Assembly: GCF_004153455.1 (NCBI RefSeq)
Contig: NZ_SDQE01000001.1
Span: forward strand, 806,001-870,000
Direction of reading: 5' to 3'
DNA: 64,000 nucleotides
DNA from: Allopusillimonas ginsengisoli
GTDB lineage: Bacteria > Pseudomonadota > Gammaproteobacteria > Burkholderiales > Burkholderiaceae_B
A program made the translations under genes and the position numbers. How positions within the stretch are numbered: position 1 is the stretch's first letter; the number at the start of each line of letters is the position of its first letter. The notes beneath the pieces are model-generated. The model was not told where the DNA came from. It searched no databases and saw nothing but the letters and a program-made list of their open reading frames with translations. Shown piece by piece: positions 2,850 through 56,292 of the stretch.

Positions 2850-3001
2850 GCAGTTTCCTCATAGCCCCGCCGTGGCAGGTAGTTCTAGCTTCGATTATGG
2901 AAAGGGTAAATGGAACAGCGGATCATGGCCAACAAGCCTTCCTTGCGGAACCAGTTAAAATTGAGAACTTTTGCGGCATCTCGCTTACTGGCTAATCGCT
3001 C

Positions 3002-3910
3002 ATGCTCACTTTTCAACAAATCATTTTAACGCTTCAGCAATACTGGGATCGCCAAGGCTGCGCACTGCTGCAACCGTATGACATGGAAGTGGGTGCTGGC
3101 ACTTCGCACACCGCGACCTTCCTGCGCTCCATCGGGCCCGAACCCTGGCGCGCCGCCTATGTGCAGCCCTCCCGCCGGCCGAAAGACGGCCGCTACGGCA
3201 ACAACCCGAACCGTTTGCAGCACTATTACCAGTACCAGGTGGTGCTCAAGCCCGCCCCCCCGGAAATCCTCGACCTTTACATCGGTTCGCTCGAAGCTCT
3301 CGGCATTGACCCCAAGGCCCACGACATCCGCTTCGTGGAAGACGACTGGGAAAACCCCACGCTGGGCGCCTGGGGCCTGGGCTGGGAAGTCTGGCTCAAC
3401 GGCATGGAAGTCACCCAGTTCACGTATTTCCAGCAGGTGGGGGGGCTGGACTGCTCACCGACCACCGGCGAGATCACCTACGGGCTGGAGCGCCTGGCCA
3501 TGTATTTGCAGGACGTCGAAAGCGTGTACGACCTGGTCTGGACAGCATCGCCCGATGGCCGCCAGGTGCTGTATCGCGACGTGTTCCACCAGAACGAGGT
3601 GGAACAGTCCACATACAATTTCGAGCATGCCTCCACCACCATGCTGTTCGCCCACTTCAATGACTACGAAGCCGAAGCGCAGCGCCTGATCGAGGTGCCG
3701 CTGGCACTGCCCGCCTACGAGGCCACGCTCAAGGCGGCTCACACCTTCAATATGCTGGATGCCCGGGGCGCGATCAGCGTCACCGAACGAGCTGCCTATA
3801 TCGGCCGCATCCGCAACCTGTCGCGCGCCGTCGCGCAGGCCTATTACGATTCACGCGAAAAACTAGGATTCCCCATGCTGGTCCAGTCCACAGCGGAGGC
3901 AGCATTATGA
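3002..3910 (+). CDS. glyQ: Glycyl-tRNA synthetase alpha subunit
   Basis: Catalytic subunit of the bacterial alpha2beta2 glycyl-tRNA synthetase, a class II enzyme that charges tRNA-Gly with glycine. The 302-residue length and the opening [18 protein letters not shown] are typical, as are [19 protein letters not shown] and [18 protein letters not shown]. It is the first gene of a tightly coupled operon: its TGA overlaps the glyS ATG in an ATGA. The upstream interval of about 150 bp, divergent from the crotonase gene, should hold the operon promoter. Confidence 0.98.
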
Positions 3911-27027: not shown

Positions 27028-27164
27028 CGGAACACTCGCAAAAGGCACCGCCCCGGTAAACAGGCCGGCCCTCGATATTGAAGGATATGCAAAGTCTTCG
27101 ATTTTACCATCGGGGCGGGGGGAGGGTTTTGGGTGTCTGACCAAGGGTGCGATGGGGTCTCCTG

Positions 27165-27503
27165 CCGGAGGCGTCTGGCTGGTGGTGCCTGGCTGCGGAG
27201 GTATCTGTTGACGGCCGGGCAGGGGCTCATCCGGCTTCCGGCACAACCTCGCCGGTTCGGCGCCCACGCGCCGAACATCGCGTCGGCCGCTCGTCCAGGC
27301 CCTTCGGCCTTCCCTTCGCGCCTGCCTCGCTCGGCTCAGATCGTGCCTGCAGCCGGATGAGCCCCTGCCCGTCCTGCATTGAATTCATGCGCCACGCCGC
27401 TGGGGCGGGTGGCTTGCTTGGCATTTTTCTGATATAGCCTGTCATAGCAAAAGAGCTCTTGCGCTTGTGGTCATGGGCCCCCCTATCAGGGCCCATGACC
27501 ACA
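27165..27503 (-). repeat. Structured inverted-repeat element, copy 1
   Basis: Read 5' to 3' on the minus strand it has: hairpin A (27503-27491 paired with 27478-27466, 13 bp); a conserved AGCGCAAGAG box; a CCACCCGCCCCAGCG box; ATTCAATGCAGG; and a 20-bp closing stem B (27370-27351 with 27236-27217) around a core of about 114 bp. CCGTCAACAGA and one or two degenerate 23-bp units follow. The core is the same as in copy 2 by eye, yet both stems A and B have different sequences that remain fully paired. Inside the core an 8-bp stem closes on GTGG. No transposase or target-site duplication is visible. Confidence 0.8.
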
Positions 27504-27608
27504 TCGGGTTGCTGGCTTTCGGAAGGCTGATCGGCATTAGTCTGATCGGCAATAGTGATTGCACTCGGGCATGCAGACACCACCACCGTCCGCATGCAAA
27601 CGCTCCGA

Positions 27609-27901
27609 CGTGAAGCCGGGCCTGGATAGGGAGGCCCGGCTTCACGAGCGCAAGAGATCTTCGGCACAAACCAGACGCAGGAGCAGAAGGCCAAGCACCC
27701 CACCCGCCCCAGCGACCGTACGCATGAATTCAATGCAGGTCGGGCGGTCGTTCACCCGCCTGCAGGCACGATCTGAGCCGAGCGAGGCAGGCGCGAAGGG
27801 AAGGCCGAAGGGCCTGGACGAGCGGCCGACGCGATGTTCGGCGCGTGGGCGCCGAACCGGCGAGGTTGTGCCGGAAGCCGGGTGAACGACCGCCCGACCG
27901 T
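27609..27901 (+). repeat. Structured inverted-repeat element, copy 2
   Basis: Inverted twin of copy 1. Parts in order are: hairpin A (27609-27623 with 27632-27646, 15 bp, loop GGATAGGG); AGCGCAAGAG; the CCACCCGCCCCAGCG box; ATTCAATGCAGG; and closing stem B (27738-27758 with 27879-27899, 21 bp) around the shared core, which contains the hairpins 27802-27815 and 27837-27856. Stem B shares almost no sequence with stem B of copy 1, but pairs perfectly. The 23-bp tandem array starts right after it. This pattern is expected of a structured RNA, or of DNA whose function depends on folding. Confidence 0.8.
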
Positions 27902-28094
27902 CAACAGAACCTATCGGTACAAGCCAACAGAAGCCAACTGAACCCATCACATACGACAACAGAACTTACCAGCACGAACAAACAGAATCCACCAGCACGA
28001 ACAAACAGAATCCACCAGCACGAACAAACAGAATCTATCAGCATGTGCCAACAGAATCTATCAGCATGTGCCAACAGAACCCGGCAGCATCCAG
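27902..28094 (+). repeat. 23-bp tandem repeat array
   Basis: About eight units beginning MAACAGAA: 27902-27924, 27925-27956 (expanded and diverged), 27957-27979, 27980-28002, 28003-28025, 28026-28048, 28049-28071 and 28072-28094. Units four and five are identical, and units six and seven differ by one base. The second half of the unit comes in variants (CAGCACGAAC, CAGCATGTGC, CGGTACAAGC). There are no spacers, so this is not a CRISPR array. It ends about 90 bp before rsmE and could contain or modulate its promoter. Confidence 0.85.
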
Positions 28095-28181
28095 CCCGAT
28101 ACAATATGACAACGCAAAACCACTGACGTCATATCAACGCCGACACCCGACACCGTACTTTCCGCCGCGCCACCTGCTGCC

Positions 28182-55955: not shown

Positions 55956-56031
<76 letters not shown>

Positions 56032-56098
56032 AGTTCAGTGAAGAATTGCAGTACAGTCGCATTTAATATGCTAGAATGCGCAGCTTGTTTAAGTCCTG

Positions 56099-56174
56099 TC
56101 CCCTTCGTCTAGAGGCCTAGGACACCACCCTTTCACGGTGGGTACAGGGGTTCGAATCCCCTAGGGGACGCCAG
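56099..56174 (+). tRNA. tRNA-Glu (TTC)
   Basis: 76 nt including CCA. Acceptor GTCCCCT pairs with AGGGGAC; anticodon stem CCACC/GGTGG holds loop CTTTCAC, anticodon TTC. Confidence 0.97.
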
Positions 56175-56215
56175 GTTTTTTCCTGGCTTTGTAGTTTAAG
56201 TAGCACACCGCTGCG

Positions 56216-56292
56216 GAGCGGTAGTTCAGTTGGTTAGAATACCGGCCTGTCACGCCGGGGGTCGCGGGTTCGAGTCCCGTCCGCTCCGCCAA
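56216..56292 (+). tRNA. tRNA-Asp (GTC)
   Basis: 77 nt including CCA. Acceptor GGAGCGG pairs with CCGCTCC; anticodon stem CCGGC/GCCGG holds loop CTGTCAC, anticodon GTC. Accessory DNA begins about 100 bp downstream. Confidence 0.97.

What the first reader, a model, noticed from the sequence alone, without database searches (positions are those of the whole stretch)
27165..27901. Inverted twin element whose stems differ in sequence but stay perfectly paired around an invariant core
Copy 1 (27217-27370, minus) and copy 2 (27738-27899, plus) share a core of about 115-120 bp with no difference that I can see. The closing stems are different sequences: 20 bp in copy 1 (27217-27236 with 27351-27370) and 21 bp in copy 2 (27738-27758 with 27879-27899), each perfectly complementary to itself. 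Compensatory change of this kind in two neighbouring copies is the mark of a structure kept by selection or by a process that rebuilds the stem. A structured non-coding RNA, a recombination or transposition substrate, or a folded DNA regulatory site would all fit. I know of no described family with these features.
Basis: partly seen in the sequence, partly recalled or inferred. Interest (0 to 1): 0.85.

Follow-up and report, generated by a model that had tools for sequence, protein, structure and literature searches.

The report
Twin RNA-like mobile repeats in Alcaligenaceae
A DNA repeat scattered through genomes of one bacterial family often comes as mirror-image pairs, and each half can fold into the same three-armed RNA-like shape whose long stem keeps its pairing while its sequence changes; the copies tested match no known RNA family, and the function is unknown.

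Summary
Two inverted copies share 122 identical bases; within the stated stems five base pairs differ and all five are compensated, while one further pair at the inner end is broken in copy 2. They belong to a dispersed family. The window's genome has five such twins plus remnants; a DNA search found none in four congeners, whose tkt-rsmE site is empty. A linker motif occurs in 69 of 268 family genomes; in genus g2, 42 of 43 genomes carry the core, up to 70 matches. All 31 twins found share one layout. H1 folds as a three-way junction: 26 of 62 pairs change on both sides, 171 cells against 44.5 in shuffles. Wobble pairs and H1 energy favour the outward strand, though the rest of the unit does not. 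No Rfam match; Y1 transposase in 2 of 9 and reverse transcriptase in 4 of 10 element-bearing genomes searched. Best reading: a mobile, BIME/REPIN-like inverted dimer, about ten times larger, selected for an RNA fold. Transcription, enzyme and function are not shown.

The parts
27118..28095 (.). approximate extent of the insertion relative to the tkt-rsmE intergenic region of congeneric genomes
   Evidence: orthologous sites in G001-G004 are short and lack the element; ends judged by eye, no target-site duplication resolved
27204..27214 (+). outer boundary motif of copy 1 (TCTGTTGACGG; family form TTCTTNTGACG)
27216..27371 (-). H1 of copy 1: closing stem 27216-27236/27351-27371 around the conserved core; folds as a three-way junction on the minus strand
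27398..27422 (+). linker motif of copy 1 (CGCTGGGGCGGGTGGCTTGCTTGGC)
27451..27464 (+). conserved AAGAGCTCTTGCGC of copy 1
27466..27503 (+). H2 of copy 1: 15-bp perfect hairpin, variable stem
27504..27608 (.). spacer between the two halves
27609..27646 (-). H2 of copy 2: 15-bp perfect hairpin with a different stem
27648..27661 (-). AAGATCTCTTGCGC of copy 2
27690..27714 (-). linker motif of copy 2 (CGCTGGGGCGGGTGGGGTGCTTGGC)
27738..27899 (+). H1 of copy 2: closing stem 27738-27758/27879-27899 around the same core; folds as a three-way junction on the plus strand
27896..27909 (-). outer boundary motif of copy 2 (TTCTGTTGACGGTC on the minus strand)
27935..28089 (.). 23-nt tandem iterons outside copy 2 that resemble its boundary word

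Best explanation
The pair is one copy of an apparently non-coding, intergenic, dispersed repeat: an inverted dimer whose halves each carry an outer three-way-junction fold (H1), a conserved 25-base linker motif and an inner hairpin (H2). SHOWN: the fold is conserved through compensatory change; its closing stem is free in much of its sequence while staying paired; the pair orientation was the same in every twin found; copies lie at unrelated loci in one genome and the tkt-rsmE site is empty in four congeners. SUPPORTED BUT INDIRECT: the relevant molecule is the outward-reading strand as RNA (one-sided wobble pairs, H1 energy, purine-rich internal loops GAAGG/GACGA). INFERRED: the RNA is supplied by read-through from the gene on the far side, and H1 acts as a very stable RNA 3'-end structure (nuclease or read-through barrier) between neighbouring, mostly 3'-facing, genes. 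The dimer has spread as a non-autonomous mobile unit by an unidentified enzyme. Stem diversity is then drift under a pairing constraint.
For: Covariation on 25 g2 H1s: 62 pairs, 96.9% of cells paired against 85.2% in shuffles; 26 pairs and 171 cells changed on both sides against 14.7 and 44.5; 0 of 500 shuffles reach these; sliding partners by 1-3 columns leaves 35-47% paired. Of all column pairs, filtered for two-sided change and at least 88% pairing, 23 passed; the 16 strongest, and 19 in all, lie in one nested fold. In 34 copies outside g2 the strongest three pairs, and several weaker ones, fit the same helices, with off-fold pairs appearing from rank 6. Orthologous g2 copies show compensated changes. 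Own-arm against swapped-arm pairing, 62 copies. Strand: A.C against G.T on the core strand 58:21; 28:12 and 30:9 for copies on the two contig strands; 24 against 9 copies, 29 ties, p=0.014; H1 more stable on the outward strand in 79 of 80 copies. Layout: 31 of 31 twins. Boundary word to core 39-40 nt in 41 of 51 copies that had the word within the 34-44 nt scanned. Context: gene next to H1 reads toward it in 45 of 60 and 16 of 20 in g2. Mobility. Retention: twins next to homologous ORFs in two genera (L046, L076).
Against: No transcript was examined. No sigma-70 promoter-like site in either twin scanned. The linker+H2 part is not more stable on the outward strand (8 of 62 and 0 of 18 copies), nor are control upstream regions (15 of 71), so composition contributes to the energy asymmetry. 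Copies within a genome are related, so counts are not independent events; 17 of 62 copies had a swapped arm at least as good as their own. The window's own twin lies between divergent genes, and 15 of 60 H1s have a gene reading away (a heuristic). Single-core loci are common: 27 of 46 loci outside g2 and 11 of 23 g2-type loci. The boundary-to-core spacing could only be seen within 34-44 nt; 11 of 62 copies showed no word there. GTAG, the tag of REPs, does occur at the outer end of one half of g2 twins. One of four congeners (G004) has a single linker-pattern match. No target-site duplication and no enzyme were identified.
Confidence: 0.58

Rival explanations
1. A DNA-level substrate: H1 and H2 fold in single-stranded DNA or as cruciforms and are recognised by a nuclease or recombinase, in the manner of REP/RAYT or IS200/IS605 ends. 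Pairing is kept for DNA, not RNA. (Raised from 0.20 to 0.22, and the best explanation lowered from 0.60 to 0.58, after the GTAG words in g2 were noticed.)
For: Dispersed copies, empty sites, inverted dimers, conserved boundary words and a linker not explained by folding. In 11 of 11 aligned g2 twins one half has CTAC just outside its stem (GTAG on the other strand), and 7 of 11 have GTAG at the opposite arm (by eye). G.T is also tolerated in folded DNA.
Against: Y1 transposase (PF01797) absent from 7 of 9 element-bearing genomes searched, while 3 of 4 congeners without a detected copy have it. The wobble bias points outward in both halves, which one excised strand would not give (inference). 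Conserved internal loops and a three-way junction go beyond a cleavage hairpin.
Confidence: 0.22
2. No selection on structure: template switching at quasi-palindromes keeps copying one arm onto the other, so stems stay matched whatever mutates.
For: Very high identity between arms; stems more variable than the core.
Against: Covariation at single pairs isolated by internal loops (A2 columns 49-91, 56-85); a G-U pair kept in 14 of 25 copies and another in 23 of 25, which arm correction would tend to erase; one-sided wobble bias.
Confidence: 0.08
3. A bidirectional transcription terminator or insulator between convergent genes, acting on the strand read by the adjacent gene.
For: Preference for gene 3' ends; two terminator-like sites in the window's twin against 0.6 expected, one of them in the linker of copy 1 on the inward strand.
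Against: H1 is more stable on the opposite strand in 79 of 80 copies; no terminator-like site in the g2 twin scanned.
Confidence: 0.1
4. An RNA-mobilised element (retron-like or SINE-like) moved by a reverse transcriptase in trans.
For: RNA-like fold on a dispersed element; RVT_1 present in 4 of 10 element-bearing genomes, the window's included.
Against: RVT_1 (PF00078) not found in the other 6 of 10, including G021 with 36 core matches.
Confidence: 0.05

Closest known systems
REP/BIME/REPIN elements (GTAG-tagged, RAYT-associated)
   Same: Intergenic, near gene 3' ends, inverted dimers, often heterodimers, apparently non-autonomous (passages of PMC3733652). GTAG words at the outer end of one half of g2 twins.
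   Different: REPs are 20-40 bp hairpins; here each half is about 300 nt with a three-way junction. GTAG is not in the boundary consensus outside g2, and Y1 transposase is absent from 7 of 9 element-bearing genomes searched.
CGTC-tagged REPs
   Same: The outward strand leaves the H1 stem with a CGTC-containing word in many copies (such as GCGTCAGAAGAA); dimers predominate and no dedicated transposase is known (passages of PMC3733652).
   Different: CGTC REPs have 8-9 bp stems and 4-5 nt loops; here stems of roughly 20-40 bp enclose a core of about 80-115 nt.
Bor repeats / Bor-1 and Bor-2 of Bordetella
   Same: Intergenic, structured, multicopy families in related bacteria: Bor-1 117 bp with 196 matches in B. 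bronchiseptica, 93 bp with 128 in B. pertussis (table passages of PMC2267715); 26-30 bp Bor hairpins (passages of PMC1590033).
   Different: No sequence was readable, so identity with the H1 core could not be tested; twins, linker or stem hypervariability were not mentioned in the passages seen.
MITEs such as ERIC, NEMIS, Nezha
   Same: Dispersed, non-coding, inverted structure, intergenic (largely recalled).
   Different: The inverted halves differ in stem sequence, and in many twins in H2 type; target-site duplication not resolved.

Membership tests
REP/BIME/REPIN with RAYT | 20-40 bp palindromic unit | tested here: not met
   unit about 300 nt, H1 alone about 165 nt
REP/BIME/REPIN with RAYT | GTAG tag beside the hairpin | tested here: inconclusive
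   not in the boundary consensus TTCTTNTGACG, but CTAC/GTAG stands outside the stem of one half in 11 of 11 aligned g2 twins (by eye); no count against chance
REP/BIME/REPIN with RAYT | Y1 tyrosine transposase in the genome | tested here: not met
   PF01797 absent in 7 of 9 element-bearing genomes searched, the window's included
REP/BIME/REPIN with RAYT | inverted dimers at intergenic sites | tested here: met
   31 of 31 twins in one orientation, though 38 of 69 loci show one core only; context
CGTC-tagged REP | 8-9 bp stem with 4-5 nt loop | tested here: not met
   stems and cores far longer
CGTC-tagged REP | CGTC (or TGTC/CCTC) at one end | tested here: inconclusive
   CGTC-containing word on the outward strand in many but not all copies, by eye
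Rfam families | match at gathering score | tested here: not met
   only tRNAs in the window; 0 matches in 17 related loci
Retron | reverse transcriptase beside the structured RNA | tested here: not met
   PF00078 found in 4 of 10 element-bearing genomes; for those four, distance to the copies was not checked
MITE / IS ends | target-site duplication | tested here: inconclusive
   empty sites found but flanks too diverged to resolve ends
Bor-1 of Bordetella | sequence match to the published model | not testable with these tools
   no sequence in the passages seen; supplements could not be opened
Integron attC | attC structure and integrase | not tested
   considered only

The most novel reading that the evidence does not exclude
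A new class of bacterial mobile element whose mobile or functional form is a structured RNA: an inverted pair of three-way-junction RNAs in which a long duplex, free in sequence and perhaps fixed in length, acts as a ruler for an unknown enzyme, spread through a bacterial family without a consistent Y1 transposase or reverse transcriptase.
Probability: 0.15. Interest if true: 0.9.

Novelty: new variant of a known kind. Interest (0 to 1): 0.72.

Why it matters
Structured repeats at dozens of intergenic sites per genome may matter for transcript ends and genome change in these bacteria, yet no Rfam family matched the copies tested. The freely varying but paired stem is a natural experiment on compensatory evolution: many paralogous and orthologous copies allow pair-by-pair rates to be measured. 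If an enzyme or RNA-binding protein recognises the duplex plus loops, it would be a new recognition mode for mobile repeats.

Tried and rejected
Rfam at permissive E-values gave weak unrelated hits (best E 0.039, far below that family's cut-off). Plasmids and phages: no match; viral contigs: no exact match to one core pattern. Recurrent accessory gene beside the copies: none stood out among 401 heuristic ORFs from fetched DNA; clusters were frame-shadow ORFs, ordinary genes or orthologous placements. IS256-type fragments in two spacers of the window's genome (label recalled) were set aside as later insertions: the spacer stretch also matches elsewhere in G001, G003 and G004, which lack the twin, and the window's twin shows none by eye. 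Outside the family, 16 genomes of the order gave only short matches (about 23-100 nt, E 4.5e-6 or weaker; two candidates scored per genome), treated as chance. Boundary word as a -35 box: no promoter-like site found. Coding: open frames run through the cores; not tested further. A covariance model was not built; direct counts were used instead.

Dropped rows: 9 of 74 profile hits (degenerate outer units of the window's genome) were left out; cores near locus ends or with partial core hits were left out (62 of 74 remained in 41 and 60; 60 in 59). A1 used 34 of 63 listed copies, chosen by eye for a recognisable linker and H2. A2 used 25 of 38 listed H1s, leaving out duplicates of one place and most cores of other length. 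One search examined 30 of 43 g2 genomes; the other 13 were not fetched. One search aligned 11 of 12 g2 twins.

Full report
CHECK. The two copies are as described. The 20-bp and 21-bp stems are perfect, and the identical block is 122 nt (27231-27352 against 27760-27881). Five stem pairs differ between the copies and all five are compensated; one more pair, at the inner end, is broken in copy 2, and one at the outer end is broken in copy 1 (read). On the outward strand each H1 folds into the same three-way junction, -117.3 and -116 kcal/mol, z -8.0 and -8.5; copy 1 on the other strand folds at -102.2, z -7.7.

ANATOMY. Each copy continues inward: a 25-base linker (CGCTGGGRCGG...GTGCTTGGC), AAGA(G/T)CTCTTGCGC, and a second hairpin H2 whose stem is also copy-specific. 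In the five twins of the window's genome the two H2s are of two types. Of 14 other twins outside g2, 8 (L046, L051, L055, L058, L062, L075, L076, L077; two genera, g32 and g35) also pair two H2 types, by eye; the other 6 were not assigned or lack a clear H2. Outside H1 lies a boundary word TTCTTNTGACG, in some copies repeated outward every 22-25 nt; beside copy 2 this is the 23-nt array at 27935-28089.

DISTRIBUTION. The window's genome has five twins, degenerate outer units and one core-deleted remnant. Four congeneric genomes gave no match to the 737-base query, though G004 has one linker-pattern match. A DNA search found matches in 31 of 268 genomes of the family, some of them short and weak, with two candidates scored per genome. 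The linker pattern with up to 2 mismatches occurs in 69 of 268 genomes and 17 of 43 genera, while the reversed control matched once each in 7 genomes. In genus g2, 43 of 43 genomes matched a DNA query that also held a flanking gene, and the core pattern matched 42 of 43, up to 70 places (G010), control 0. An exact core pattern, which would miss g2-type cores, hit 12 stretches among 84,980 species' genomes, all titled Alcaligenaceae, Pusillimonas, Pollutimonas or Candidimonas. In 399 genomes drawn from the order, matches outside the family were short and weak.

TWINS. Outside g2, 19 twins were found among 46 loci with a core hit, 27 having one core only; among 23 g2-type loci, 12 twins and 11 with one core. 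All 31 have H1 outermost and none the reverse. Neighbouring places listed show the same order by eye, apart from one same-strand pair (G006) and one overlapping double match (G007). In g2 the aligned twins are conserved over roughly 700-900 nt, the inner spacer being variable; the two halves differ in core length and linker. In 11 of 11 aligned g2 twins one half has CTAC outside its stem, that is GTAG on the other strand.

COVARIATION. Own arms pair far better than swapped arms (24.1 against 8.5, sd 3.1; 62 copies; own partner best in 45 of 62; relatedness of copies probably explains some of the rest). On 25 g2 H1s in outward orientation, 23 column pairs passed a filter for two-sided change and pairing; the 16 strongest and 19 in all lie in one nested structure. 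Counts: 62 pairs, 96.9% of cells paired, 26 pairs with two-sided changes, 171 such cells against 44.5 +/- 6.1 shuffled; slid controls 35-47% paired; one pair I proposed (46-94) fails in 23 of 25 copies, and RNAalifold shifts that short helix by one, otherwise finding nearly the same fold. In 34 copies outside g2 (6 from the window's genome), the helices corresponding to P2, P3 and P4 again show two-sided change, with off-fold pairs appearing lower in the list. At one g2 locus behind the same gene, 20 of 30 fetched loci gave a core alignment and close species differ by compensated pairs; the other 10 look empty, deleted, truncated, cut by a contig end or shortened in the core.

STRAND. On the core strand, stem mismatches are A.C 58 and G.T 21, so wobble pairs fit the other, outward, strand; the split is 28:12 and 30:9 for copies on the two contig strands, and 24 copies against 9 (29 ties, p 0.014). 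In A2 a G-U pair is kept in 14 of 25 copies and another in 23 of 25. H1 is more stable on the outward strand in 61 of 62 and 18 of 18 copies. Against this, the linker+H2 part is so in only 8 of 62 and 0 of 18, and control regions in 15 of 71, so composition matters.

CONTEXT AND MOBILITY. By a codon-position heuristic, the gene next to H1 reads toward it in 45 of 60 cases and 16 of 20 in g2, where the H2 side also reads toward in 17 of 20, many with weak scores. The window's twin is an exception: tkt and rsmE diverge. The tkt-rsmE gap in four congeners lacks the insert. Twins L046 and L076, from two genera, have homologous ORFs on both sides (dsbD and hemB by recall), which suggests long retention. 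Y1 transposase was found in 2 of 9 and reverse transcriptase in 4 of 10 element-bearing genomes searched.

KNOWN? Rfam: no match at gathering score, only weak hits below it. Paper searches listed nothing that I recognised as this element; of the listed papers I saw passages of PMC3733652, PMC2267715, PMC1590033 and PMC2864571 only. The nearest are REP/BIME dimers and the Bordetella families Bor and Bor-1. Bor-1 may be the H1 core seen earlier; no sequence was available to test this, so part of the family may already be in print under that name.

JUDGEMENT. Fold, twin layout and dispersal are shown. RNA as the acting molecule is likely but indirect. Mobilising enzyme, transcription and function are open.

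Noticed in passing
window 27935-28089: Tandem copies of a 23-nt unit (AACAGAATCTATCAGCATGTGCC type) just outside copy 2; similar 22-25 nt repeats of the boundary word lie outside other copies (L048, L058, L047, L071).
   Followed up: partly
L021 3774-4007, L022 2554-2630 and 4308-4498, L024 2691-2767: Degenerate H1-like units in tandem about 147 nt apart on the outer sides of twins in the window's genome, as if arrays grow outward.
   Followed up: partly
L022 about 3100-3830; L021 about 2920-3260; L075 1-125: Fragments that look like an IS256-type transposase and its end inside twin spacers, and one such end interrupting an H1 stem (label recalled).
   Followed up: partly
L142-L159, outer end of the second half of g2 twins: GTAG/CTAC words beside the stem of one half (11 of 11 aligned twins), as in REP sequences.
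   Followed up: no
L023 about 2900-2975 and L024 about 3340-3375: Run of GGCATA hexamers in the spacers of two twins.
   Followed up: no
L182 and L189, behind the orthologous g2 gene: Another repeat with the word GGTGTC(T/A)GACACC occupies the site where other species carry the element.
   Followed up: no
L078 1427-1521: One copy has an extra perfect inverted repeat inside the core, extending an inner arm (seen in A1).
   Followed up: no
window 55956-56288: Three tRNA genes in a row, the only Rfam matches at gathering score in the window.
   Followed up: no
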